Below, one piece after another: positions 1 through 9,376 of a stretch of 9,376 bases of DNA. The translations under genes and the position numbers were made by a program. The stretch lies in assembly GCA_046727435.1 (NCBI GenBank), contig JBKPCR010000154.1, positions 1 through 9,376 of the forward strand, read 5' to 3'. Source of the DNA: CAVPRW01 sp046727435 [NCBI: bacterium] (GTDB lineage Bacteria > Tectomicrobia > Entotheonellia > J063). Each line of letters begins with the position of its first letter. The stretch's first letter is position 1. The notes below the pieces were generated by a model, which saw only the letters and a program-made list of their open reading frames with translations, searched no databases and was not told where the DNA came from.

Positions 1-1680
1 GCCATCAAGAATTCGTCTGCCGCAGTCGTTCTGGGCTATTTTTTTCACATGAGCGAAGCCGACCTCGATTACCAACTCGAACAGAACGAAATAGACCAAC
101 AGCTCAAACGCATTAGTGCTTCAAAATACCCTTTCATCATCTATACAGAACGACCAGCGGACGTTGTTCCCTTTATCAAAGCCTATGCCCCTGAGAGCAA
201 TCTCGAAATGTTCACCGAGTCGGCCGCCTCCGCGGGCTATTTCACCACGACGAGTGATCCGGATGGTGTGGTGCGATGGATGCCGCTCATGGTCCAGGCC
301 GGCGAGGATCTCTTCCCTCCTCTGGCGGTATCGACTGCCTGGCACTACCTGGGCAGGCCTCAACTGACAGTGAAGGTGGGGCGCTACGGGGTGGAAGGGA
401 TACAGATGGGAGACCGGTTCATACCCACCGACGAAAGCGGTCAACTGCTCATCAACTACCTCGGCCCACAGAAGACCTTTCCCCATGTTTCCATCACCGA
501 TATCCTCAGCGGCAAGTTCGCCAGCGGGACATTTACTGACAAAATCGTGCTGGTGGGGGCCACAGCCATAGGCATCCATGACCTGAGGAGCATACCCTTC
601 AGCCCAGTATATCCTGGCATAGAGATTCAGGCCACCGTCGTCGACAATATCCTGACCCAAAACTTCCTCACGAGACCCAAGTGGTCGAAGATCTACGACC
701 TGCTCGCCATCATCACACTGGGCGCGCTGCTCGGCATCGCCCTGCCGCGGATGAGCCCTCTCAAGGCGCCTTTGTGTGCGATGGGACTGTTCATCTTGCA
801 CATCTTCATCGCCCGCTGGCTTTTTGTACAGGCCGGGGTATGGCTCAACATCGTCTACCCCCTGTTGGTTCTTGCGACGACGTATACGGTTCTTACGGTG
901 TATTATTACGTCACTGAACACCTAGAAAAAGGCAGGATGGACGAAGAGTTGAAAATTGCCCATGACATTCAGATGAGCATGTTGCCGCGTAAGGCACCTC
1001 AGATTGAGGGATTCACGGTAGCTGCAAGATGCATCCCAGCCAGGGAGGTGGGCGGGGATTTCTACGATTTTATCGAAGTCCGTACCAATGGAACGGCTGA
1101 CCGGTTAGGGATCGTCATTGGCGACGTTTCGGGCAAGGCAGTGTCAGGGGCCCTGGTGATGGCTGCCTCCAGAAGCATTTTTCGGATTCTGACGGAGACT
1201 TATGCGTCTGTCGAGCAGCTGATGGCTATCGCCAATACCCTTCTCAATCGCGATATCAAAAAAGGGATGTTCGTGGCTCTGGCCTATACAGTATTTTATC
1301 CCCAACAAAAGATGCTGACCCTCTCAAACGCCGGGCAGACTCAGCCCATCCTTTGTCCTGGTGACAAATCCAAGCCTGTCTATATCGACACTCCCGGAGA
1401 TAAATTCCCGCTGGGGATCCTCAAGAAATGCCGTTATCAAGAAACTCAGGTATCCTTGAATCCAGGGGATACCCTGGTGTTTTACACCGATGGGGTGGTG
1501 GAGGCGATGAACAACAAGCGAGAATTATATGGATTTGAGCGATTTATGACCTCGATCGAGAGAGGCAGGGAATTGGATGCCGATGCCCTCTTGGAAAAGC
1601 TCATGGATGATGTCGCGCGTTATGCTGGCGATAGCGAACAACATGACGATCTGACGATCGTGGTGGTGAAGGTGGAATGA
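1..1680 (+). CDS. CHASE2-domain membrane protein with SpoIIE/PP2C-type serine phosphatase domain (5' partial)
   Basis: Sensor phosphatase expected to dephosphorylate a STAS-domain antagonist in a partner-switching pathway. The frame is open from base 1; the 16 codons before the first Met (base 49) end in GYFFH, a CHASE2-like stretch, so the true start lies upstream and the N-terminal signal/membrane segment is missing. Counting from base 1: CHASE2 sensor (extracytoplasmic in this family) about 1-220; three membrane helices about 234-249, 257-276 and 281-304; a short linker; then the SpoIIE phosphatase about 315-559. Metal-binding aspartates are present in GGDFYD (D353), GDVSGK (D375), YTDGVVEA (D497) and QHDDLT (D549/D550). 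The usual GDVSGKG is GDVSGKA here, a mild deviation. The 3' neighbours encode a matching kinase and STAS protein. Domain assignment is firm; the sensed signal is unknown. Confidence 0.93.
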   Translation, partial: AIKNSSAAVVLGYFFHMSEADLDYQLEQNEIDQQLKRISASKYPFIIYTERPADVVPFIKAYAPESNLEMFTESAASAGYFTTTSDPDGVVRWMPLMVQAGEDLFPPLAVSTAWHYLGRPQLTVKVGRYGVEGIQMGDRFIPTDESGQLLINYLGPQKTFPHVSITDILSGKFASGTFTDKIVLVGATAIGIHDLRSIPFSPVYPGIEIQATVVDNILTQNFLTRPKWSKIYDLLAIITLGALLGIALPRMSPLKAPLCAMGLFILHIFIARWLFVQAGVWLNIVYPLLVLATTYTVLTVYYYVTEHLEKGRMDEELKIAHDIQMSMLPRKAPQIEGFTVAARCIPAREVGGDFYDFIEVRTNGTADRLGIVIGDVSGKAVSGALVMAASRSIFRILTETYASVEQLMAIANTLLNRDIKKGMFVALAYTVFYPQQKMLTLSNAGQTQPILCPGDKSKPVYIDTPGDKFPLGILKKCRYQETQVSLNPGDTLVFYTDGVVEAMNNKRELYGFERFMTSIERGRELDADALLEKLMDDVARYAGDSEQHDDLTIVVVKVE

Positions 1681-1742
1681 AGGAACTCAAAAATCCCCAA
1701 GCGGGTGGCCCTCAATGGATTCCCCTACAGGGGCAGTGACAC

Positions 1743-1802
1743 TGGCGCCTCGCCCTGGGGTCTTGCCGGTGACGTTTTGAGGTTGGTAACGAGGCGCCAA
1801 CC
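1743..1802. repeat. Overlapping inverted repeats at the promoter of the kinase-STAS-cyclase genes
   Basis: A perfect 10-bp inverted repeat has arms TGGCGCCTCG (1743-1752) and CGAGGCGCCA (1790-1799), 37 bases apart. A second pair, GGTTGG (1781-1786) and CCAACC (1797-1802), is nested and shares bases with the right arm, so the two cannot fold together. The right arms lie in the spacer of the candidate promoter and GGTTGG covers part of its -35 box. It could be an operator or a transcript hairpin downstream of the phosphatase gene. There is no U-tract, so a simple intrinsic terminator is unlikely. Confidence 0.5.
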
Positions 1803-1811
1803 GGCTATAAT
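1783..1811 (+). promoter_or_regulatory. Sigma70-type promoter for the kinase-STAS-cyclase genes
   Basis: A -35 box TTGGTA (1783-1788, 4 of 6 to consensus) and a perfect -10 box TATAAT (1806-1811) are separated by the optimal 17 bp. The start of transcription would fall near 1818, giving a leader of about 80 bases before the kinase gene at 1899. It suggests that the downstream genes can be expressed independently of the membrane phosphatase. Confidence 0.6.
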
Positions 1812-1898
1812 AAGCGCTCAGTTAAACCACAGAGCCGTCATCCGGCGGGCAGCGATGCCTTGTCGATATGTGTCACCTAACGGCGAGGGGCACACTCT

Positions 1899-2336
1899 AT
1901 GGAGTTAGGAACAAATTTAGAGCTGCATGTCCCCAGCGTGCCGGGCTTTGAAAAGGTCGCGATGGATTTTGCAGCCTCCGTGGCGAAGATGATGAAATTT
2001 CCCGATGACCGCATCGACGATTTGAAGACCGCGGTGGCTGAGGCCTGCATAAATGCCATTGAACACGGCAATAGCCTAGACGCCAGCATTAAAGTCGGTA
2101 TCAGTCTCACGGTAGAGGAGTCCAAACTCCAGGTGGCTGTATGGGATGAGGGCACAGGGATCGGTCAGATCAATCCACCCAGCATCGAGGGTACGCTGGC
2201 GAGCAAAAAAAGGCCGCGAGGGTGGGGGATTTTCTTAATCAAGAATTTGATGGACGAAGTAGAATTTGAGACCACTCCCGGGAAAGGGAACGTCGTCAGG
2301 ATGGTGATCCATCTGGAGAGAAAGTCCCCCCATTAA
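1899..2336 (+). CDS. RsbW/SpoIIAB-like serine-protein kinase (anti-sigma-factor-type GHKL ATPase)
   Basis: Small cytoplasmic GHKL-fold kinase of 145 residues, the usual size for RsbW/SpoIIAB proteins. In this family it phosphorylates a STAS antagonist on Ser/Thr and binds either that antagonist or a target protein. The N box is at 42-58 (AVAEACINAIEHGN; E48 and N52 expected for Mg-ATP and catalysis), the G1 box is WDEGTGI (82-88) and the ATP lid/G2 box is RGWGIFLI (107-114). W109 replaces the more common Leu or Arg of RGxG. The ATG is supported by GAGGGG (1885-1890) eight bases upstream. The STAS gene follows after 73 bp. No sigma factor gene lies in the window, so the target is not shown; calling it an anti-sigma factor would be inference. 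Confidence 0.9.
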   Translation: MELGTNLELHVPSVPGFEKVAMDFAASVAKMMKFPDDRIDDLKTAVAEACINAIEHGNSLDASIKVGISLTVEESKLQVAVWDEGTGIGQINPPSIEGTLASKKRPRGWGIFLIKNLMDEVEFETTPGKGNVVRMVIHLERKSPH

Positions 2337-2363
2337 GGTGGCCCCTGGAAGCCTCACCCCGTG

Positions 2364-2398
2364 GGAGTCCACAGAGTGGTACTCCTCCAATATGGAGG
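2364..2398 (+). promoter_or_regulatory. Two mutually exclusive leader hairpins, one masking the STAS ribosome-binding site
   Basis: Hairpin A pairs GGAGT-CCAC (2364-2372) with GTGG-ACTCC (2376-2385), with loop AGA and one bulged T (2380). Hairpin B pairs CCTCCA (2384-2389) with TGGAGG (2393-2398) around a 3-base loop. The arm TGGAGG contains the GGAGG Shine-Dalgarno of the STAS start at 2410. A and B share bases 2384-2385, so forming A should loosen B. Ribosomes ending the kinase gene at 2336, or a bound factor, could shift the balance. The pairing is seen in the sequence; the regulatory role is inferred. Confidence 0.45.
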
Positions 2399-2409
2399 CA
2401 CAGTACACG

Positions 2410-2754
2410 ATGAGCAATGCTATCGAGATATCCATTCGCAATAGAGGGGATGTTGCCGTTATCGACATCAAAGGCGATGTCACAGCTTTTACGGGAGAAG
2501 CGATTGAAGATGCATACCAACAGGTGAGCATAGATGGATCACGTAAGATATTATTTGTCTTTGATAACAAATGCTATATTAACAGCGGTGGCATCGCTAT
2601 TCTGATTGGCATTGTGGGTGAAAGCCAAGAACGCGAACAAACTATACGCATTACCGGTCTATCGGATCACTTTCACAAAATCTTCGATATGGTTGGGCTG
2701 GCTAGATACATCAAAATCTTTCTGTCAGAAGAGGCTGCCCTGGGAGGGTTTTAA
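2410..2754 (+). CDS. STAS-domain antagonist (SpoIIAA/RsbV-like phosphorylatable switch protein)
   Basis: A 114-residue single-domain STAS protein, expected to be the phospho-switch between the kinase just upstream and the membrane phosphatase. It opens with a beta-rich segment (DVAVIDIKGDVTAF, 14-27). The conserved phosphoacceptor loop is CYINSGGIAIL, with S59 at the position phosphorylated in SpoIIAA/RsbV. The C-terminal part (KIFDMVGLARYIKIF) is typical of STAS helix 4 and the last strand. The frame stays open back to a GTG at 2338, but residues there do not resemble STAS. The ATG at 2410 has GGAGG (2394-2398) 11 bases upstream, a slightly long spacing; an ATG at 2392 overlaps that site. 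The next gene begins at the base after this stop, implying tight co-translation. Confidence 0.9.
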   Translation: MSNAIEISIRNRGDVAVIDIKGDVTAFTGEAIEDAYQQVSIDGSRKILFVFDNKCYINSGGIAILIGIVGESQEREQTIRITGLSDHFHKIFDMVGLARYIKIFLSEEAALGGF

Positions 2755-4449
2755 TTGTGGAGCGAAATCGTGGAAGATGATATCCCGCTGTCAGCAACAC
2801 AGCTCTTCACGGAAGCAGAGCAGTCAGAGCGAGAGTTGGAGAAGCGGGTCTTCCATCTCAAAACTCTGTATGATATGAGCCAGGTGATCGGAGCCTTGCG
2901 AGAACCTGAGCAGATTATGAAAAACCTGCTGATGATGGTGATAGGGACATTTGGCGCCCGTAAAGGCGTTATTTTCCTTGTCGATGTTCAGAGGGGGCGT
3001 CTTGAGACGGTAACGCAGAGAGGTCTGGGTAAAGCCTCGCTGGAGGCATTATCGCAGGCCATACTAGCGGGCTCTTTTGCAGAGATCAAAGATCTAAGGG
3101 ACATCCAGATTCTGGATGACAGCGAGAAAATCCAAAAGGCCGGGAAGAAGATATTTGCTTTGCTCTCATCCACTCATATGAAGCTATGGATTCCCTTTGC
3201 CGTCAATGAGAGCTTCCAGGGTGGGATTGGCTTGGGGGACAAGCTGTCGGGCGAGTCGTATACTCCGGACGATCAAGAGTTACTCAGTACCATCGCCAAT
3301 CAGTTGACGGTCGCTCTTGACAATGCTTTGGCCTATATGGAGATTCACCGACTCAATGTCGGGTTAGAGGCCAAGGTGCGGGAACGGACCGTAGAGCTGC
3401 GCGAGGCGAATCACCAGCTTGAGCTGCATAACCGGTTTATTCGCGAGACCTTTGGCCGCTATGTTTCCAATGAAGTGGTCGCCAGCTTGCTGGAATCTCC
3501 CGAACGATTACAATTGGGCGGGGAAAAGCGGAAGGTAACGATTTTGATGTCCGATTTGCGGGGCTTTACGTCGCTGGCGGAGCGCTTGGCGCCGGAACAA
3601 GTCGTGAGCATCATCAATCGATATCTGAGCACCATGGTCGATACCATCCTACAGTACCAGGGCACCATTAATGAGTTCATCGGCGATGCGATTCTGGTCA
3701 TCTTCGGTGCCCCAGTCTCCCGGGAAGACGATGCCCGCCGGGCGGCGGCCTGCGCCGTGGCGATGCAGTTGGCCATGGCGTCGGTCAATGCCGAGAATAG
3801 ACGGGAGGGGTTGTCCGAAGTGGAAATGGGCATTGGGATAGACACCGGGGAAGTGGTAGTAGGGAATATTGGATCGCATAAACGCACGAAATACGGTGTC
3901 GTGGGAAGTTGTGTAAACCTGACCTCCCGCATAGAGTCCTATACCATCGGTGGCCAGATCCTGATCTCCGAGGCTACGCGGCAAGAAGCAGGGCCTTTTT
4001 TAAAGATAGCTGAGCGCCTAAAGATCGAAGCAAAGGGGTTAGAACAGCCGATCGCCCTCTACGAGCTACAGGGCATTGGCGGGGAGCACAATCTCTTTCT
4101 CCCTGAGACAGAAGACATGCTCGCTGCTCTCCCAGAAGAGCTCCTTGTCCGGTATACCTTGCTCGAAGGGAAGTATCCCGGTGGAGCCCCGTTCACGGGG
4201 AGATTGGTGAAGCTGTCAGCCAGGGGAGCAGAGATACACTCCGAACATCCAGTCCCCCCATGGAGCAATCTCAAGATGCAGCTCATCGGCAGCAACAGAG
4301 AAAAGATCCCGGGAGATTTCTACGGGAAGGTCGTGTGGAGACCAACAGCGAGTCGTATAGGGTTTTTTCTGCGCTTCACGTCCATATCACCAGAAGTGAC
4401 GACGTTCTTGCAGGGTCTCTTAGTGTCTTCTCCCGGTAACACTGCCTAG
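2755..4449 (+). CDS. GAF domain - class III adenylate/guanylate cyclase - PilZ-like protein
   Basis: Cytoplasmic multidomain cyclase of 564 residues making a cyclic nucleotide from NTP. Order: GAF about 38-200; signalling helix/coiled coil about 201-250 with the linker FGRYVSNEVV (233-242); class III catalytic domain about 258-440; PilZ-like domain about 463-555. Metal-binding D267 (MSDLRGF) and D311 (FIGDAI) and transition-state N388 and R392 (VNLTSR) are present, so it should be active as a homodimer. The purine-selecting positions hold E307 and G381 rather than the Lys and Thr/Asp of adenylate cyclases; Glu is the guanylate-cyclase-type residue. The PilZ-like part has KLSARGAEI, lacking the Asp/Asn of (D/N)xSxxG and a clear RxxxR. 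The TTG start abuts the STAS stop and has GGAGGG (2743-2748) six bases upstream; the next GTG (2770) is too far from it. Confidence 0.9.
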   Translation: MWSEIVEDDIPLSATQLFTEAEQSERELEKRVFHLKTLYDMSQVIGALREPEQIMKNLLMMVIGTFGARKGVIFLVDVQRGRLETVTQRGLGKASLEALSQAILAGSFAEIKDLRDIQILDDSEKIQKAGKKIFALLSSTHMKLWIPFAVNESFQGGIGLGDKLSGESYTPDDQELLSTIANQLTVALDNALAYMEIHRLNVGLEAKVRERTVELREANHQLELHNRFIRETFGRYVSNEVVASLLESPERLQLGGEKRKVTILMSDLRGFTSLAERLAPEQVVSIINRYLSTMVDTILQYQGTINEFIGDAILVIFGAPVSREDDARRAAACAVAMQLAMASVNAENRREGLSEVEMGIGIDTGEVVVGNIGSHKRTKYGVVGSCVNLTSRIESYTIGGQILISEATRQEAGPFLKIAERLKIEAKGLEQPIALYELQGIGGEHNLFLPETEDMLAALPEELLVRYTLLEGKYPGGAPFTGRLVKLSARGAEIHSEHPVPPWSNLKMQLIGSNREKIPGDFYGKVVWRPTASRIGFFLRFTSISPEVTTFLQGLLVSSPGNTA

Positions 4450-4484
4450 TTGGGGTTTGGTCCTCTGAGTAGGTGGCCCTCCGG

Positions 4485-4512
4485 TTGACATCACCTTGGG
4501 CGCCGCTATACT
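4485..4512 (+). promoter_or_regulatory. Near-consensus sigma70 promoter for queF
   Basis: Perfect -35 box TTGACA (4485-4490), 16-bp spacer and -10 box TATACT (4507-4512, 5 of 6). Transcription would start near 4519, leaving about 62 bases of leader before the GTG at 4582. It separates queF from the cyclase gene that ends at 4449. Confidence 0.75.
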
Positions 4513-4530
4513 GTCAGACGTTATACGGTG

Positions 4531-4555
4531 TGCCATCGAGCTGGTGAGCATGGCA
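4531..4555 (+). promoter_or_regulatory. Leader hairpin upstream of queF
   Basis: TGCCAT (4531-4536) pairs with ATGGCA (4550-4555). Inside, GCT (4540-4542) pairs with AGC (4547-4549) around the loop GGTG; CGA (4537-4539) is bulged. This makes nine base pairs starting about 12 bases after the predicted transcription start. GGCAA (4552-4556) could instead pair with TTGCC (4575-4579), enclosing the GAGAG ribosome-binding site, so a two-state leader is conceivable. It does not match the preQ1-I aptamer pattern I know, so a riboswitch is not claimed. Confidence 0.4.
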
Positions 4556-4581
4556 AGAATCAATGGATTGAGAGTTGCCTA

Positions 4582-4989
4582 GTGGAAACATCGAGTACGG
4601 GCACAGGCTACACCGATGAGCATGCACGTGCTGGAATCGATGCAGAGCTTCCAGCCATTGATGTGTGGCCGAATCAATTTCGCGGCTACGAGATCACCAT
4701 CGCCATCCCCGAGTATACGTCGATTTGTCCAAAGACGGGATTGCCCGACCTCGGCACGATCACCATCCGGTATATGCCCGGCGAGCAGTGTCTGGAATTG
4801 AAAGCGCTCAAATATTACATCCTGGCTTATCGCAATCTCGGGATTTTCTACGAGAACGCCGTCAATCGCATCCTACGGGACATCGTAGCGGCCTGCCAGC
4901 CGGTCCGGGCGGTGGTGACTGGCGAGTTTAACGTCCGTGGCGGCATGCGCACGGTCATCGAGGCCACATATCCGCTCCCCTCGCTTTAG
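4582..4989 (+). CDS. queF: NADPH-dependent 7-cyano-7-deazaguanine (preQ0) reductase, short type
   Basis: Reduces the nitrile of preQ0 to the aminomethyl group of preQ1 with two NADPH, the last free-base step before insertion into tRNA in queuosine biosynthesis. With the chosen start it is 135 residues, a short single-domain QueF of the tunnelling fold. Catalytic C49 lies in YTSICPKTGLPD, D56 is the partner acid, and the family signature (E-S/L-K-S/A-LK) appears as CLELKALKYY (70-79, E72); E91 in FYEN fits the substrate-binding Glu. The frame is open back to GTG 4528, but that codon lacks a ribosome-binding site, sits at the predicted leader hairpin and adds no family-like residues. GTG 4582 has GAGAG (4570-4574) seven bases upstream. 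No other queuosine gene is in the window. Function is firm; the start is moderately sure. Confidence 0.92.
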   Translation: METSSTGTGYTDEHARAGIDAELPAIDVWPNQFRGYEITIAIPEYTSICPKTGLPDLGTITIRYMPGEQCLELKALKYYILAYRNLGIFYENAVNRILRDIVAACQPVRAVVTGEFNVRGGMRTVIEATYPLPSL

Positions 4990-5765
4990 TACATCACCAA
5001 CCCGCCATCGACATTGAACGCTTGCCCGGTAATCTGATCGGCGTCGGACGACGCCAGGAAGGCTGCCATAGCCGCGATGTCGTCCGGCTGGTTGCGGCGC
5101 CCGATGGGAATCTGCGCCTCGCGGGTCTTAATGGCCTCGTCGACCGATACCCCCATGAGCTTGGCGCGCCCGGCGGTCGCCATCAGCGACATGTCGGTGA
5201 CGGTGGTGCCGGGACAGACGGCGTTGACGTTGATGTTATAGGGGGCGAGCACTGCCGCCGCGCTCTTGGTCATATGAATCACCCCCGCTTTGCTCACCCC
5301 ATAGTGTAAGAAGTGCGGCTCGGGTTGCTTGCCAGAAATCGAGGCGGTATTGACGATCTTGCCGCTACGGCGTTTGACCATTTCGCGCGCCACAGCCTGC
5401 ATGACGAAAAAGACGCCTTTGGTGTTGACATCTAGGATGAAATCCCAGTCAGCCTCGGTGATGTCGAACATGTCTTGGAATCGCAGCACACCGGCATTGT
5501 TGCACAGCACATCGATGCGCTTGAAGTGCTCGACGCACTGGCCAACCATGCGCTGAATGTCAGACTGCTGCGTCACATCCACCTTGAGCCCAAGACATGG
5601 TTGTCCCAATTCCTGAACCGCTGCCGCCGTGCTCTCCGCCAACGCTGGCTCGATATCTGCCGCCACGATATGCGCGCCCTCCTGCGCAAATCGCAGTGCC
5701 ATCGCCCGTCCAATACCACGGCCGGCTCCTGTTATCAGCACCACGTTGTCGCTGAATCGTGCCAT
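4986..5765 (-). CDS. Short-chain dehydrogenase/reductase (classical SDR, probably NAD-dependent)
   Basis: A 259-residue classical SDR of FabG-like size, an NAD(P)-dependent alcohol/ketone oxidoreductase. The cofactor motif TGAGRGIG is at 12-19, D37 ends the second strand (VAADIE), which favours NAD(H) over NADP(H), and NNAG is at 89-92. The catalytic set N114, S142, Y155 and K159 (YGVSK) is complete. The C-terminal ITGQAFNVDGG motif is present. The substrate cannot be read from sequence; fatty-acid, sugar-alcohol and hydroxy-acid dehydrogenases share this pattern. The ATG has GGAG eight bases upstream, inside the end of dinB; the two genes overlap by 31 bp and are probably translationally coupled. 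The stop overlaps the convergent queF stop by 4 bases, with no terminator between. Confidence 0.93.
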   Translation of the reverse strand: MARFSDNVVLITGAGRGIGRAMALRFAQEGAHIVAADIEPALAESTAAAVQELGQPCLGLKVDVTQQSDIQRMVGQCVEHFKRIDVLCNNAGVLRFQDMFDITEADWDFILDVNTKGVFFVMQAVAREMVKRRSGKIVNTASISGKQPEPHFLHYGVSKAGVIHMTKSAAAVLAPYNINVNAVCPGTTVTDMSLMATAGRAKLMGVSVDEAIKTREAQIPIGRRNQPDDIAAMAAFLASSDADQITGQAFNVDGGLVMY

Positions 5766-6952
5766 AAGTGCCTCTCCTTCGGGTTGAGTAACGCTGCCCG
5801 GGTGATCGCACGCGGGCCGAAGCGGGCCCTGATGGCGTCCTCGGCGCGCTCGGCTTGCAGTCGCTTGTGCGTTGAATCAGCAAAAAGCGACAGTTGTCGC
5901 GGCGCCAGCGAGGTCAGCTCTGTGGCGGCAATCCCCAGTAGGCGGACCTTCAGCCTCGCGGTCGGCAGCTGGCTCAGCAGCCTCGAGACGGCGTGGTAGA
6001 GGTCCATAGCCACTGCCGTCGGCTCTGCCAGTGACTGCGTGCGAGTGAGCGTTACGAACGCAGCATCGCGGTATTTCAACGTGACCTTCGTCGCCATGAA
6101 CCCTTCAGCTCGCAAGCGTTGCCCCACCTTGTCGGCCAGTTCGAGGAGCGTGCGATGCAAGGTCTCGGCATCATCCGTATCCTCCTCAAAGGTCGTCTCC
6201 GCTCCGATGGATTGCGGGTCACGATGCGACGTCACGGGGCGATCATCGAAGCCGTGTGCCAGTCGCCAGATGTGGGTGCCGAGACTGCCAAACCGCCTGG
6301 AGAGCTGTGCCTGCGGCCACTGAGCTACCTGTCCGATCGTGCGCAATCCCAACGCCTCGAGCTGACGAGCGGTCTGCTTCCCGACCCCCCACAGCCGACT
6401 CACTGGCAGATCGTGCAGGAAGACCTCGACATCAGCCTCATGCAGGACCAGAAACCCATCCGGTTTGCTTAGATCAGAGGCTAACTTGGCCAAAAATTTA
6501 TTGGGTGCCACTCCCACTGAGGCTACCAGGCGCTCCTCGCGCACAATGTCTTGCTTGATGCGCCGAGCAATGTCCTCGACCGCACCAAAGAGCCGAGTGC
6601 TGCTGGTGGCATCGAGGAACGCCTCATCGATGCTGAGCGGCTCCACGACATCGGTGTAGCGCTCGAAGATGGCGAAAATGCGTTCGGACACTTGATGATA
6701 GTGCCCCATGCGGACTGGCAAAAAGCTCGCCTGGGGACACAATCGGTAAGCCTGCGAGATCGGCATGGCAGAGTGTACACCAAAGGGGCGCGCCTCGTAG
6801 GACGCGGTCGATACCACACCGCGTCCTCTGCCTCCCTGGGGATCGGCGCCAACAATGACCGGACGCCCACGATATGCTGGATGATCGCGCTGCTCCACAG
6901 CGGCGTAAAAGGCATCCATGTCGATATGCACAATTCGCCGGGTTTCCGCCAT
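5735..6952 (-). CDS. dinB: DNA polymerase IV (Y-family translesion polymerase)
   Basis: Error-prone lesion-bypass polymerase without proofreading. The 405 residues contain the palm motif HIDMDAFYAAVE (D11, D13; steric gate Y16, equivalent to E. coli F13 and Dpo4 Y12), catalytic SIDEAFLD (D109, E110), the RLWGVGKQTARQL helix-hairpin-helix (186-198) and a C-terminal little-finger domain. The beta-clamp-binding peptide QLSLF is at 353-357. The family usually ends soon after a segment like RFGPRAITRAALL (377-389); here about 16 more residues follow because the frame runs 31 bp into the SDR gene. The ATG has GGAGG four bases upstream, a short spacing. No LexA-type box was found in the 54 bp upstream, so SOS control is not shown. 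It lies third in a probable four-gene operon. Confidence 0.96.
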   Translation of the reverse strand: MAETRRIVHIDMDAFYAAVEQRDHPAYRGRPVIVGADPQGGRGRGVVSTASYEARPFGVHSAMPISQAYRLCPQASFLPVRMGHYHQVSERIFAIFERYTDVVEPLSIDEAFLDATSSTRLFGAVEDIARRIKQDIVREERLVASVGVAPNKFLAKLASDLSKPDGFLVLHEADVEVFLHDLPVSRLWGVGKQTARQLEALGLRTIGQVAQWPQAQLSRRFGSLGTHIWRLAHGFDDRPVTSHRDPQSIGAETTFEEDTDDAETLHRTLLELADKVGQRLRAEGFMATKVTLKYRDAAFVTLTRTQSLAEPTAVAMDLYHAVSRLLSQLPTARLKVRLLGIAATELTSLAPRQLSLFADSTHKRLQAERAEDAIRARFGPRAITRAALLNPKERHLWHDSATTWC

Positions 6953-6968
6953 CGTGCCTCCGAGCCGC

Positions 6969-7009
6969 TAACGCCATCGGGAACTGCGCTCAGATGCATG
7001 CAGGCGTTA
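6969..7009 (-). repeat. Inverted repeat between the nuclease gene and dinB
   Basis: Perfect 7-bp arms TAACGCC (6969-6975) and GGCGTTA (7003-7009) flank 27 bases; the right arm contains the stop codon of the metallophosphoesterase gene. A transcript hairpin here could attenuate or process the mRNA between the two genes. There is no U-tract, so it is not a standard terminator. Confidence 0.35.
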
Positions 7010-7816
7010 TCGCGCGCCTTCCATCCGGCGTTCTAGCGCCGCATTGACCAGTGGCCGGAGATCGATGCGCCGGACGTCCACAGGTGGTGATGCCCCAGTC
7101 TCAAATTGCACCAGCGCCACATGCCCATCGGCGCCGGGCGCTCCAGGGAAGAACCCTGGCGCTCCAGAATAGTATGCCGTGACCGGGCCCTGCGACACGT
7201 CGGCGAACGCATGGCAATGTCCTAGCGCGACATAGTCCCAGCCCGAGGTGCGAATTTCCGCGGCATAGATCGGTGAGGAACGATACGAGGGCACATCCTC
7301 TTCCATGAAAAACCCGTGGCCAAGTGCGATGTGCCAGGCGTCTCCTTGCGGGCGGGGGATCCCACCCAGCGGGCGGTAGCTCGGCTCGTGCTCGACCATG
7401 CCACGTCCCCACAGCACCAGATTGGGAACGGCGAGTTGATGCCGCTCGCCATGTGGATGTGAGATCAACACCAAATCGGTACACGCCGCCGGCAAGTTCA
7501 CTTGGCGGTAGATTGATTGCCTGTTCAGACAATCGTGGTTGCCGGGGATCATGACGATCGGTCGGCCGGCGCGACGCAGTTCCTGAATAGCGAAATCAAC
7601 CACATCTCCACTTGGGCGGTTCGAGTCGAACAGATCTCCCGCGATCAGCAGCAGGTCGACGTTTTCCTGAATGGCGAGATCGATGACGGTGCTGAACGCT
7701 TGATGATTGATCTGACGATAGCGCTGCATATGTGGATCAGCGACGTACCCATCGAGGTCAAGATGCACATCGGCCGTATGTAGGACTTTGAGGGTCTGTC
7801 GAGGTGTATGCGTCAC
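7007..7816 (-). CDS. SbcD/Mre11-like metallophosphoesterase (putative DNA repair nuclease)
   Basis: Calcineurin-type metallophosphoesterase of 269 residues from the GTG at 7816. All signature blocks of the dinuclear metal site are present: TADVH (D16, H18), AGDLFD (D61), PGNHD (N93, H94, D95), LGHGF (H167) and LGHCH (H200, H202). The opening KVLHTADVHLD and spacing resemble the SbcD/Mre11/YhaO exonuclease group, but the protein is shorter than SbcD (about 400) and lacks its C-terminal capping region; no SbcC-like ATPase is in the window. The frame is open up to 7945, but those codons overlap tenA and look unlike the family; GTG 7816 has GGAAGG five bases upstream. It lies 54 bp before dinB, which supports a role in DNA repair. 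The exact substrate is unknown. Confidence 0.88.
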   Translation of the reverse strand: MTHTPRQTLKVLHTADVHLDLDGYVADPHMQRYRQINHQAFSTVIDLAIQENVDLLLIAGDLFDSNRPSGDVVDFAIQELRRAGRPIVMIPGNHDCLNRQSIYRQVNLPAACTDLVLISHPHGERHQLAVPNLVLWGRGMVEHEPSYRPLGGIPRPQGDAWHIALGHGFFMEEDVPSYRSSPIYAAEIRTSGWDYVALGHCHAFADVSQGPVTAYYSGAPGFFPGAPGADGHVALVQFETGASPPVDVRRIDLRPLVNAALERRMEGAR

Positions 7817-7861
7817 AAGCTCCTTCCTGTCCTTCTGAGCACAGCCTGCCAGCGCGATAAC

Positions 7862-7867
7862 ATTATA
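7862..7867 (-). promoter_or_regulatory. Consensus -10 hexamer at the end of tenA (possible internal promoter)
   Basis: A perfect TATAAT on the minus strand overlaps the tenA stop, about 46 bases upstream of the metallophosphoesterase start. No -35-like hexamer is found 16-18 bp further up and there is no extended TGn. It may be chance, or a weak promoter for the nuclease and dinB genes. Confidence 0.25.
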
Positions 7868-8534
7868 CCGGCCACTGCTCCTGGCGATAGCCCATTTCCC
7901 AGAACGCGTGCTCAAATCGGCTGCTGGTGAGGAACGCTTCCTCAATGCGCTGTAACTCCTCCTGTGGCATCCCCGCCGCCAGCCGATCCATCAGGTCCCT
8001 GATCCACTCCGTCAGCTCCACGAATTCCGCAGCCGAGTACATGCGAATCCACTTCACATAACGGGGGTCCGCAGGCATTCCTTGCTTCGCCAGCATCAAG
8101 CCGATTTCGCAAAACCCCCACATGCAAGGGAGCAACGCCCCCACTAGCTCCGGAAAGCTCCCGAACGTTGCAGTGCGCAACAGGAAATCGGTATAGCCCT
8201 GACAGGTGGGAGCCTTACGGGTCTTTTCCAGCTCTTCCGCGGAGATGCCCCATTCGCGCGCATAGGAGCGATGCAGATCCATTTCGACGTCGAGAACCGC
8301 ATGCACGAGCTCGGCGAACTTTGCCATCGTCTGCAGATCGGGCGCTTTGGCCACGGCCATGGCAAACAGTCGGGCATAATCGATCAGATAGAGGTAGTCC
8401 TGTTTGACCCAGTGCTTAAACTGTTCGACATCCAGTGTGCCGTCGCCAATGCCTCGCACGAAGGGGTGATGACGCTGCGCCTCCCAGATAGGCGCCGCCC
8501 GGCGGTGCAGATAGTCGGCAAAGCGTTCAGCCAT
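7863..8534 (-). CDS. tenA: TenA-family aminopyrimidine aminohydrolase / thiaminase II
   Basis: All-helical TenA/THI-4 protein of 223 residues, normal length for the family. TenA_C members hydrolyse aminopyrimidines such as formylaminopyrimidine-derived aminomethyl-HMP to HMP, salvaging degraded thiamin, and can cleave thiamin. Residues match the B. subtilis active site: D46 and Y49 (QDYLY), Y114, nucleophile C137 (ALLPCMWGFCEIG), Y166 and E208 (RFEHAFWEMGY). The tyrosine four residues after the catalytic Cys (Y139 in B. subtilis) is F141 here. The ATG has GGAGAGG six bases upstream. No other thiamin gene and no TPP riboswitch pattern were found nearby; the gene instead leads a set with a nuclease, dinB and an SDR. 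Family assignment is firm; the in vivo substrate is less sure. Confidence 0.93.
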   Translation of the reverse strand: MAERFADYLHRRAAPIWEAQRHHPFVRGIGDGTLDVEQFKHWVKQDYLYLIDYARLFAMAVAKAPDLQTMAKFAELVHAVLDVEMDLHRSYAREWGISAEELEKTRKAPTCQGYTDFLLRTATFGSFPELVGALLPCMWGFCEIGLMLAKQGMPADPRYVKWIRMYSAAEFVELTEWIRDLMDRLAAGMPQEELQRIEEAFLTSSRFEHAFWEMGYRQEQWPV

Positions 8535-8874
8535 GGCATGCCTCTCCGATGTTATGCCTGTAGCGCAGCGCCATGATGACGGCTCATGGGCTCACGTTGC
8601 AGTCCACCTAGATTGCCCTCAACAAGCTCCCAAAACCCGTGATGGCCTGCTGGACGCCAGCGAGACCGCAGTACCCAGGGCGACTAACTCTGCCATATCT
8701 GAGCCAGCCATGTTTCGCCAGGCGTGTACCTGGCCTTCATGTACACCAGCTATGCCCTGATTGCAAGGAAAATCCATGGCGGATCAACGAGGTAGGCGCG
8801 ATTTCAGAAGACCCGCCAAGGTTTTAGAGGCGGAGCTCTGGCGGACAGCTGGGCCCCGACGAGCAGAATAGCTG
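8535..8874. other. Intergenic region upstream of tenA, no gene recognised
   Basis: No convincing coding frame, RNA gene or mobile element is seen. It must hold the promoter of the leftward tenA operon, but only a weak match was found on the minus strand (TTGCAA at 8766-8761, 17 bp, TACATG at 8743-8738). Small dyads occur: GCCAGG (8717-8722) with CCTGGC (8729-8734), GTGTAC (8724-8729) with GTACAC (8741-8746), and CCGCCA (8813-8818) with TGGCGG (8839-8844). A 23-codon stretch ending in TAG at 8793-8795 reads like a hydrophobic protein end, but may be chance. Confidence 0.5.
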
Positions 8875-8903
8875 TTGACACGTCATCCGGGCTTTCCTAC
8901 AAT
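8875..8903 (+). promoter_or_regulatory. Strong sigma70 promoter reading rightward from the intergenic region
   Basis: Perfect -35 box TTGACA (8875-8880), optimal 17-bp spacer and -10 box TACAAT (8898-8903, 5 of 6). Transcription would start near 8910. The first ORF with a good ribosome-binding site is the small one at 8965. No U-tract terminator is visible before the gene start at 9347, so the transcript may carry a leader of about 440 bases into that gene. Confidence 0.65.
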
Positions 8904-8964
8904 GCCCCCTACGAAACTGATGGCATGCTGCTCACAGCTGCTGTCGCCACGCAGGAGCATGCAC

Positions 8965-9069
8965 ATGAAGAACGCTCAAGATCGCCTGCCATTGATGGGC
9001 GCATCGATTATTTGCTCGCTAGCCTGCACCCCTTTCCTGCTAAGGCCCCAACTCCTTACCCGCGTCTAA
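8965..9069 (+). CDS. Possible 34-residue hydrophobic small protein or leader peptide
   Basis: A short ORF about 55 bases after the start point of the promoter at 8875-8903. The ATG has AGGAG (8953-8957) seven bases upstream, ideal for initiation; a second in-frame ATG at 8959 is too close to that site. The product has a charged start (MKNAQDR), then a hydrophobic core LMGASIICSLACTPFLL with two cysteines, and a tail RPQLLTRV. It resembles a small membrane protein, a signal sequence (the SLAC stretch is a poor lipobox) or a leader peptide. A GC-rich hairpin begins two bases after its stop. No family is recognised and it could be a decayed exported-protein gene or chance. Confidence 0.35.
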   Translation: MKNAQDRLPLMGASIICSLACTPFLLRPQLLTRV

Positions 9070-9070
9070 T

Positions 9071-9088
9071 CCCCCTCCGCGCGGGGGG
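9071..9088 (+). other. GC-rich hairpin immediately after the small ORF
   Basis: CCCCCT (9071-9076) pairs with GGGGGG (9083-9088; the T-G pair is a wobble) around the 6-base loop CCGCGC. It follows the small-ORF stop by one base. No run of T follows, so it is an attenuator-like or pausing hairpin at best rather than a canonical terminator. Confidence 0.35.
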
Positions 9089-9334
9089 CATAGGTGCCAG
9101 GTATAACCAGCGGCGCACGCGCAAGTCACTGACCAGTAGCAGAGGTAGCTGGCCGATTCATGCCATGTGGTCAGCTTTGCCAGCATGCCGGTTATCTATG
9201 GAGTACGCATATAGGCCATAAACATATCAGAGCCCCGATCCACTGTATTTGAACCTCGAGATGGCATGATTGGCTCGTTAATGCTGACGGGTTCTGTGTA
9301 CCGTGAGGACCCCTGAGACCTTGCAACTGGCCAT
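9089..9334. other. Non-coding stretch before the right-edge gene
   Basis: No coding frame with a family-like product, tRNA, terminator with a U-tract or well-spaced promoter is seen here. It may be an untranslated leader of the gene at 9347 if the promoter at 8875-8903 serves that gene. Confidence 0.4.
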
Positions 9335-9346
9335 GAGGAGGATAGT

Positions 9347-9376
9347 ATGCGCGCAGGCAACGAGGTGATCCTCCAG
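9347..9376 (+). CDS. Start of an unidentified gene, cut off by the window edge (3' partial)
   Basis: Ten codons (MRAGNEVILQ) are open to the end of the window. The ATG has an excellent Shine-Dalgarno GAGGAGG (9335-9341) five bases upstream, which is the main reason for calling it. Too little sequence is present to name the product. Confidence 0.5.
   Translation, partial: MRAGNEVILQ

What the first reader, a model, noticed from the sequence alone, without database searches (positions are those of the whole stretch)
1..4449. A full partner-switching set linked to a nucleotide cyclase instead of a sigma factor
The sequence shows, in order, a CHASE2-SpoIIE phosphatase, an RsbW-like kinase, a STAS protein with an intact phosphoserine position and a GAF-class III cyclase, the last two genes abutting with no gap. 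In known RsbU-RsbW-RsbV systems the kinase releases or binds a sigma factor. Here the co-encoded likely output is a cyclase, so the inference is that an extracytoplasmic signal sensed by CHASE2 sets the STAS phosphorylation state, which controls cyclic nucleotide production by direct binding of STAS or kinase to the cyclase (perhaps its GAF or PilZ-like domain).
Basis: partly seen in the sequence, partly recalled or inferred. Interest (0 to 1): 0.72.

Follow-up and report, generated by a model that had tools for sequence, protein, structure and literature searches.

The report
Phospho-switch wired to swappable signalling enzymes
A bacterial on/off protein switch that usually frees a transcription (sigma) factor appears here to control a cyclic-nucleotide-making enzyme instead, and its relatives seem to plug the same switch, through the same GAF docking domain, into several other enzymes.

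Summary
The window encodes a CHASE2-SpoIIE phosphatase (5' cut), an RsbW-like kinase, a STAS protein with the phosphoserine position (INSGG) and, abutting it, a GAF-class III cyclase-PilZ protein. No sigma-factor gene is in the window, nor within about 10 kb of related operons in 11 genomes, as far as contigs reach.

Relatives sharpen the interpretation. STAS genes of this family have a GAF protein closely downstream in 46 of 57 cases (33 of 44 without those used to build the search model), but its output domain differs: HD-GYP type, GGDEF, rhodanese, histidine kinase or class III cyclase. Kinase-STAS-GAF-cyclase recurs in two other genomes. The window's GAF is 43-46% identical to GAFs of histidine kinases in sister operons, whereas its catalytic domain is of the Cya2 guanylyl-cyclase type (E-G pair). 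So the output was swapped while phosphatase, kinase, STAS and GAF stayed together. In receiver-STAS fusions the serine is mostly lost, yet most keep the GAF neighbour.

Best reading: STAS is a phosphorylation-gated adaptor that docks on GAF, here switching a probable guanylyl cyclase. Binding is inferred, not shown. Partner-switch control of diguanylate cyclases is published; the shared GAF socket with these other outputs was not found in print.

The parts
1..1680 (+). CHASE2-SpoIIE (PPM) phosphatase, 5' end cut by window edge; CHASE2 about 19-729, SpoIIE about 1096-1674
   Evidence: Pfam; SpoIIE part 71% and 67% identical to phosphatases at sister loci L025 and L033
1899..2336 (+). RsbW-like HATPase_c_2 serine kinase (145 aa)
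   Evidence: Pfam; 64-67% identical to kinases of L025, L033, L034; N-box EACINAIEHGN and glycine-rich DEG.G / RGWG motifs conserved (motif names recalled)
2410..2754 (+). STAS antagonist/adaptor protein (114 aa; open frame from GTG 2338)
   Evidence: Pfam; 64-67% identical to STAS of L025, L033, L034
2584..2586 (+). codon of the predicted phosphoserine (S59, motif I-N-S-G-G)
   Evidence: invariant N58, S59, G61 in 13 aligned family members; position equated with SpoIIAA/RsbV phosphoserine from memory
2755..4449 (+). GAF - class III cyclase - PilZ-like output protein (564 aa, TTG start abutting the STAS stop)
   Evidence: Pfam; sequence
2851..2874 (+). pre-GAF helix motif FHLKTLYD, well conserved across different outputs; candidate docking/linker element
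   Evidence: 25-domain alignment: e.g. L38 in 24, L35 in 20, T37 and D40 in 19 of 25
2902..3324 (+). GAF domain, the part shared by the different output types
   Evidence: 43-46% identical to GAFs of histidine kinases L025/L033/L034; best match in the loci of Cya2-type cyclases 25%; tree support 0.85
3526..4062 (+). class III cyclase catalytic domain, Cya2 type
   Evidence: Pfam; PDB 2w01 (Cya2) 3.2e-66; Foldseek 2w01 2e-21
3673..3675 (+). substrate-specificity Glu (GTINE), invariant in 10 aligned sequences, window included
   Evidence: Glu stands for GTP in class III cyclases, passages of PMC4215837
3895..3897 (+). second substrate residue Gly (KYGVVG), making the E-G pair of Cya2
   Evidence: E-G pair of Cya2 in PMC4215837
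4177..4398 (+). C-terminal PilZ-like domain, shared with Cya2-type cyclases rather than with the partner-switch operons
   Evidence: Pfam 24.5 bits; matches in Cya2-type cyclases only; beta-rich in the model

Best explanation
This is a partner-switching pathway without a linked sigma factor. SHOWN by sequence: phosphatase, kinase, STAS with its serine, and a GAF-cyclase output are encoded together, and STAS followed by a GAF protein recurs across two phyla while the output and input domains change. INFERRED: the kinase phosphorylates STAS Ser59 (off). A signal reaching CHASE2 activates the SpoIIE phosphatase, which dephosphorylates STAS. Unphosphorylated STAS docks on the GAF domain and the preceding helix of the dimeric output protein and switches the attached enzyme, here a Cya2-type class III cyclase that most likely makes cGMP. 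The sign (activation by unphosphorylated STAS) is borrowed from SiaC-SiaD. The GAF is the common socket, so the same switch drives diguanylate cyclases, HD-GYP-type proteins, histidine kinases, rhodaneses or cyclases in other bacteria.
For: (1) Gene pairing: 46 of 57 family STAS genes (window included) have a GAF protein within 1.3 kb downstream on the same strand; without the 13 rows used to build the STAS model, 33 of 44. 6 of 11 further ones in one order. None of 20 other HATPase_c_2 kinases fetched as controls (18 of them from cyanobacteria) has STAS followed by a GAF output protein. (2) Output swap: the nearest operons (kinase 64-67%, STAS 64-67%, GAF 43-46%, SpoIIE where found 67-71% identical) carry HisKA-HATPase instead of a cyclase; the window's catalytic domain is 55-67% identical to 14 cyclases, of which 8 were scanned and show receiver, CHASE2, Cache-HAMP or Tll0287-like inputs or none; the GAF profile finds a GAF in 3 of the 14, 25% identical at best. 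(3) Same order again: kinase-STAS-GAF-PF00211 in L100 and L101; STAS-GAF-PF00211 in L074 and L108. (4) A cNMP-binding gene sits between STAS and GAF genes in L026, L103 and L106 and next to L100. (5) Input swap: of 11 Pfam-confirmed REC-STAS fusions, 9 have Gly at the serine position, and 8 of the 11 have a GAF-rhodanese gene closely downstream. (6) No Sigma70_r2 match within about 10 kb of the operons in 11 genomes, as far as contigs reach. (7) E-G pair and 3.2e-66 match to guanylyl cyclase Cya2.
Against: No binding or activity data. 11 of 57 STAS genes lack a downstream GAF gene, only two of them near contig ends, and 5 of the 11 later ones too. None of the 28 HD and GGDEF loci shows a SpoIIE gene in the fetched flanks, so the phosphatase is not part of every version. 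Two of 11 REC-STAS fusions keep Ser, and two (L104, L105) have a histidine kinase gene, not a GAF gene, next. Gene counts are not corrected for shared ancestry, and controls are mostly cyanobacterial. GAF identity between output classes falls to about 25-30%. The Tyr that boosts GTP use in Cya2 is Ser here, so cAMP or mixed activity is possible. The STAS-GAF contact itself was not modelled.
Confidence: 0.65

Rival explanations
1. The kinase, not STAS, is the direct partner of the GAF protein: free kinase binds or phosphorylates it, and STAS only titrates the kinase, as RsbV does with RsbW.
For: It is the classical RsbW logic, and a RsbT-type kinase controls an RsbU-N - GAF - GGDEF protein in Moorella (passages of PMC12143880 and PMC4976288).
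Against: STAS-GAF pairing persists in 8 of 11 REC-STAS loci, where the neighbouring kinase is of histidine-kinase type and Ser is mostly lost.
Confidence: 0.17
2. The switch acts on an unlinked sigma factor or other target; the GAF proteins are merely co-regulated neighbours that sense a small ligand.
For: The kinase is still SpoIIAB/RsbW-like (NCBIfam matches well below cut-off); sigma-factor genes exist elsewhere in all 11 genomes checked.
Against: Close STAS-GAF linkage in two phyla and at least five output classes, with control kinases at 0 of 20; the GAF, not the catalytic domain, follows the operon.
Confidence: 0.14
3. The cyclase makes cAMP rather than cGMP (pathway as in the best explanation, other product).
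For: Adenylyl cyclases dominate bacterial class III enzymes (recalled); Cya2's GTP-favouring Tyr is Ser here.
Against: Glu at the base-recognition site is invariant in 10 aligned sequences, and the E488K change gives Cya2 adenylyl cyclase activity (passages of PMC5995499).
Confidence: 0.3

Closest known systems
SiaABCD of Pseudomonas aeruginosa (SiaA phosphatase, SiaB kinase, SiaC DUF1987/STAS-like, SiaD diguanylate cyclase)
   Same: Four-part phosphatase-kinase-adaptor-cyclase pathway; phosphorylation prevents the adaptor from binding, the unphosphorylated adaptor binds and activates the output enzyme (passages of PMC8457831).
   Different: Output is a diguanylate cyclase without an N-terminal sensory domain, adaptor is DUF1987, contact is the SiaD stalk; here a true STAS, a GAF and a class III cyclase.
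HptB-HptR-HsbA-HsbD (P. aeruginosa) and BgrSTUWV-BgrR (Sinorhizobium meliloti)
   Same: STAS protein whose phosphorylation state is essential for control of a cyclase (passages of PMC8457831).
   Different: Both control diguanylate cyclases; no shared GAF is mentioned in that paper (0 occurrences of 'gaf').
RsbU-RsbW-RsbV / SpoIIE-SpoIIAB-SpoIIAA
   Same: Phosphatase, kinase and STAS families, serine motif.
   Different: No linked sigma factor found; output is an enzyme with a GAF domain; Asn replaces the Asp before the serine (SpoIIAA sequence recalled).
Stressosome RsbT to MtG (RsbU-N - GAF - GGDEF) of Moorella and the 'exchangeable toolkit' proposal
   Same: Switch component controls GGDEF or histidine-kinase outputs through a swappable N-terminal module (passages of PMC12143880 and PMC4976288).
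   Different: There the module bound by the RsbT kinase is the RsbU N-terminal domain; here the conserved pair is a GAF and an RsbV-like STAS.
Cya2 of Synechocystis (CHASE2 - guanylyl cyclase)
   Same: Catalytic domain family, E-G pair, CHASE2 as input, C-terminal extension.
   Different: In Cya2 CHASE2 is fused to the cyclase; here CHASE2 sits on the phosphatase and would reach the cyclase through the switch and a GAF.

Membership tests
RsbU/W/V-type partner-switching system | SpoIIE/PPM phosphatase, HATPase_c_2 kinase and STAS protein encoded together | tested here: met
   Pfam and NCBIfam; STAS serine motif
RsbU/W/V-type partner-switching system | kinase also binds a cognate sigma factor, usually encoded alongside | tested here: not met
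   no sigma gene in the window nor within about 10 kb of the operon in 11 related genomes as far as contigs reach; binding to an unlinked one is not excluded and not testable here
RsbU/W/V-type partner-switching system | reversible serine phosphorylation of STAS | not testable with these tools
   only residue conservation shown
STAS-controlled cyclase switch (Sia/Hsb/Bgr kind) | cyclase bound and switched by the STAS-like adaptor | tested here: inconclusive
   co-encoding and conservation shown; binding not testable
STAS-controlled cyclase switch (Sia/Hsb/Bgr kind) | output enzyme is a GGDEF diguanylate cyclase | tested here: not met
   window output is PF00211; GGDEF is the output in relatives of the cyanobacterial phylum
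Cya2-type guanylyl cyclase | class III catalytic domain related to Cya2 | tested here: met
   2w01 at 3.2e-66, Foldseek 2e-21
Cya2-type guanylyl cyclase | Glu plus non-Asp (Gly) substrate pair | tested here: met
Cya2-type guanylyl cyclase | GTP preference | not testable with these tools
   Tyr that favours guanylyl activity in Cya2 is Ser here
PilZ c-di-GMP receptor | RxxxR and (D/N)xSxxG motifs (recalled) | tested here: inconclusive
   Pfam domain barely over cut-off; sequence reads KLSARG and no clear RxxxR

The most novel reading that the evidence does not exclude
STAS plus GAF is a general plug-and-socket: a small phosphorylation-gated protein acting in trans on a GAF domain, so that bacteria can connect either a serine kinase/phosphatase switch or a two-component receiver to almost any dimeric signalling enzyme (cGMP/cAMP cyclase, GGDEF, HD-GYP, histidine kinase, rhodanese, phosphatase). 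The window is its probable cGMP version.
Probability: 0.55. Interest if true: 0.83.

Novelty: new variant of a known kind. Interest (0 to 1): 0.7.

Why it matters
What GAF domains without an obvious ligand respond to is often unknown. If a STAS protein is the partner of this GAF family, many orphan GAF-GGDEF, GAF-HD-GYP and GAF-histidine-kinase proteins gain a predicted protein partner and input. It would also give bacterial cGMP signalling a defined upstream switch, and show how evolution rewires pathways by exchanging output domains behind a fixed socket. The claim is directly testable with small soluble proteins.

Tried and rejected
Considered and rejected: the PilZ domain as docking site (it belongs to the Cya2-type cassette and was not found in the sister operons' outputs); the cluster as chance (controls 0 of 20); a linked sigma factor; a unique four-gene oddity (kinase-STAS-GAF-cyclase recurs in L100, L101).

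Led nowhere: the one genome-contig scan with the cyclase found only catalytic-domain relatives without kinase or STAS neighbours in the fetched flanks (the STAS query was faulty, see below). Taxonomic placement of the window was not settled; the nearest operons lie in the class that also holds G005, the Syntrophaceae MAG of L005. The structure model covers only the cyclase and PilZ part (mean pLDDT 72); no STAS-GAF complex was modelled. A promoter scan gave no signal above chance.

Errors corrected: the window STAS query was cut out of frame or absent, so its absence from those outputs means nothing; fixed with the frame from 2410. L001-L011 were not searched again with the corrected STAS model.

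Rows dropped and biases: of 13 places in 12 genomes, 8 were fetched with wide flanks; the other five came in later through the STAS search. The 13 rows of the STAS model A2 were all taken from loci with a GAF neighbour, hence the second count without them. In many genomes only about the first 10 or 11 candidates were scored, so genome counts are lower bounds. The 20 control kinases were hand-picked (short open frames; G001 and G006 left out as similar to G002; nothing from G005, G009, G010); 18 of 20 are from genomes of the cyanobacterial loci. By the plain distance rule 2 of 7 control STAS genes (L050, L057) would count as GAF-linked, through SpoIIE phosphatase genes with a weak GAF match. 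The tally of 6 of 11 was read off the printed table by eye.
Full report
WHAT IS IN THE WINDOW. The STAS carries I-N-S-G-G with the serine where SpoIIAA and RsbV are phosphorylated (recalled); N58, S59 and G61 are invariant in 13 aligned family members. The remaining genes (QueF, SDR, DinB, metallophosphatase, TenA) look unrelated, and GC content is 49-55% over the cluster and 57-62% beyond it.

THE CYCLASE. Its catalytic domain's best solved relatives are a phytochrome-Cya2 chimera (6fht, 2.6e-75) and Cya2 of Synechocystis (2w01, 3.2e-66); Foldseek with an AlphaFold2 model agrees (2w01 at 2e-21, 55% identity). Passages of PMC4215837 state that guanylyl cyclases have Glu instead of Lys and that Cya2 has an E-G pair; the window has both, and Glu is invariant in 10 aligned sequences, while the second residue varies among them (G, A or T). 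Passages of PMC5995499 state that Cya2 is CHASE2-linked and that its E488K variant has adenylate cyclase activity. A Tyr reported to raise guanylyl activity in Cya2 is Ser here. I therefore predict cGMP, with cAMP as a real alternative. Eight of the 14 relatives with the same catalytic core were scanned: their inputs are a receiver (L003), CHASE2 (L007, L008), Cache-HAMP (L009), Tll0287-like (L002, L004, L011) or none detected (L005).

NEIGHBOURHOODS BY KINASE. With a six-row kinase alignment (A1), 5 of 395 genomes of the phylum of G003, 3 of 23 of the class of G247, 1 of 55 of the class of G286, 2 of 2 of the class of G033, 0 of 5 of the class of G028 and 8 of 194 of the phylum of G001 matched at E<=1e-25; these overlap and give 15 distinct loci. 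In 14 of 15 the kinase is followed by STAS and then, directly or after one small gene, a GAF protein; the exception is L029, where no GAF output follows. Among 20 other HATPase_c_2 kinases fetched as controls, 0 show STAS followed by a GAF output protein; the GAFs seen there belong to SpoIIE phosphatases or, in L059, to a protein on the other strand.

NEIGHBOURHOODS BY STAS. A 13-row STAS alignment (A2) matched 39 of 395 genomes (41 places) and 14 of 386 (14 places) at E<=1e-20. With G308 and the window this makes 57 STAS genes; 46 have a GAF protein within 1.3 kb downstream on the same strand. The 13 rows of A2 were themselves chosen from GAF loci; without them it is 33 of 44. By output of the GAF protein: HD domain 15, GGDEF 13, rhodanese 7, HisKA-HATPase 5, class III cyclase 3 (window and both STAS genes of L074, the first reaching it past the second), and 3 cut by contig ends (L026, L068, L098). 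The 11 without are L029, L030, L069-L072, L083, L086, L089, L092, L093; L089 and L092 lie about 0.5 and 0.7 kb from a contig end. In a random-point control a GAF gene lies within this distance in 3.7% of points in control loci and 7.8% in case loci; relatedness is not corrected. Domain calls rest on Pfam for part of the members and on profiles built here for the rest. I call the HD domains HD-GYP type because Pfam reports HD_5 in the four output proteins scanned (L031, L073, L080, L064) and L031 and L032 show the GYP motif (motif recalled).

SAME ORDER AGAIN. In the order of G114, 11 of 85 genomes matched. Of 11 newly fetched STAS genes, 6 have a GAF protein downstream, two of them past a cNMP-binding gene (L100, L101, L103 first, L106, L107, L108); 5 do not (L102 with a GAF gene on the other strand, L103 second at a contig end, L104, L105, L109). 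L100 and L101 read HATPase_c_2 kinase - STAS - GAF - PF00211 cyclase, the window's order; L108 and L074 read STAS - GAF - PF00211. L026 breaks off at a contig end within the same pre-catalytic linker as L074 and L100 and is probably a fifth relative. These cyclases are far from the window's catalytic domain (profile E about 1e-14 to 1e-17, against blastp 1e-78 or better for the Cya2-type ones), so cyclases probably joined this system at least twice. A cyclic-nucleotide-binding gene stands between STAS and GAF genes in L026, L103 and L106, and beside L100; of these, L100 encodes a cyclase and L026 probably does, while L103 and L106 have other outputs. L106 also has a CHASE2-SpoIIE phosphatase upstream of its kinase.

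THE SWAP. Against the nearest operons L025, L033 and L034, the window's kinase is 64-67%, STAS 64-67%, GAF 43-46% and, where found (L025, L033), SpoIIE 67-71% identical, but their output is a histidine kinase. In L025 the SpoIIE gene lies about 5 kb from the kinase. The window's catalytic domain is instead 55-67% identical to 14 Cya2-type cyclases from 11 genomes. The GAF profile found a GAF in 3 of those 14, related Nostoc/Calothrix proteins, with 25% identity in the one blastp alignment (a first pass at E<=1e-4 in a larger set had shown none). In a 25-domain GAF tree the window groups with the histidine-kinase GAFs (support 0.85), apart from the other cyclase GAFs. The GAF thus follows kinase and STAS, the catalytic domain does not. 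The pre-GAF helix FHLKTLYD is among the conserved stretches.

INPUT SWAP. In 11 loci the STAS is fused behind a receiver domain (Pfam) beside a gene of histidine-kinase type (Pfam for L075; profile hits in the others). Nine of the 11 have Gly at the serine position; L089 and L090 keep Ser. Eight of the 11 are followed by a GAF gene ending in a rhodanese domain, all eight confirmed by Pfam; L089 ends at a contig edge, and L104 and L105 have a histidine-kinase gene next. STAS genes with an RsbW-like kinase and a GAF gene keep Ser, except L076 with Thr. Losing the serine while mostly keeping the GAF neighbour is what one expects if STAS carries the signal to the GAF and phosphorylation is only the input.

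SIGMA FACTORS. In 11 genomes the nearest Sigma70_r2 match on the same contig is 11.9 kb from the STAS gene, about 10.4 kb from the GAF-kinase gene (G247); others are farther or on other contigs. Several contigs are short, so absence is limited to what they hold.

MECHANISM. Inferred: kinase-phosphorylated STAS is off; CHASE2-driven SpoIIE dephosphorylates it; STAS docks on the GAF/pre-GAF helix of a dimer and switches the enzyme through the coiled coil. The sign follows SiaC-SiaD, where phosphorylation prevents binding and unphosphorylated SiaC activates (passages of PMC8457831). None of the 28 HD and GGDEF loci has a SpoIIE gene in the fetched flanks, so their phosphatase, if any, is elsewhere.

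WHAT IS KNOWN. Partner-switch control of diguanylate cyclases is published (HsbD, BgrR, SiaD; PMC6482189 and PMC5085249 seen only in a search listing with the start of the abstract). RsbT control of a GAF-GGDEF protein and a 'modularly exchangeable toolkit' are discussed in PMC12143880 (passages) and, for the former, PMC4976288 (passages). Searches for partner switching or STAS with adenylate, adenylyl or guanylate cyclase, GAF, HD-GYP, GGDEF or histidine kinase listed no paper whose title or abstract start describes this STAS-GAF module; two searches listed only 20 of 54 and 15 of 772. A STAS review has no occurrence of cyclase, GAF or histidine kinase (PMC8256260). The library lacks most subscription papers.

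VERDICT. Observation confirmed; interpretation supported in outline, sharpened to STAS-GAF docking and broadened to swappable outputs; binding untested. New variant of a known kind.

Noticed in passing
window 1-4450 versus 4500-9376: GC content is 49-55% over the signalling genes and 57-62% beyond, which may mean different origins.
   Followed up: no
window 4528-8534: QueF, SDR, DinB, metallophosphatase and TenA genes follow; no obvious link to signalling.
   Followed up: no
L035 6430-6963, L036 8116-8628, L037 6654-7190, L038 1170-1667, L039 6087-6677, L041 5210-5629: A small similar-looking protein of about 140-200 aa (no Pfam match in the two scanned) lies between STAS and the GAF-GGDEF gene in loci of the cyanobacterial phylum.
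   Followed up: partly
L026 643-1350, L103 2002-2481, L106 4497-5045, L100 2612-3097: cNMP-binding domain genes within or beside these operons, possible receivers of a cyclase product, although L103 and L106 have other outputs.
   Followed up: partly
L075, L084, L085, L087, L088, L089, L090, L091, L104, L105, L107: Receiver-STAS fusions next to histidine-kinase-type genes; Ser replaced by Gly in nine of eleven; GAF-rhodanese gene downstream in eight.
   Followed up: partly
L031, L063-L067, L073, L076-L082: The RsbW-like domain is the C-terminal part of a larger protein in these HD-type loci; in L073 Pfam sees AAA_16 at its N-terminus.
   Followed up: no
L106 2402-4351: Here the GAF-GAF output protein ends in a SpoIIE phosphatase domain, suggesting a cascade of switches.
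   Followed up: no
L074 5527-6006: A HATPase fragment between two STAS genes resembles the C-terminus of the GAF-histidine kinases and may be a remnant of an earlier output.
   Followed up: no
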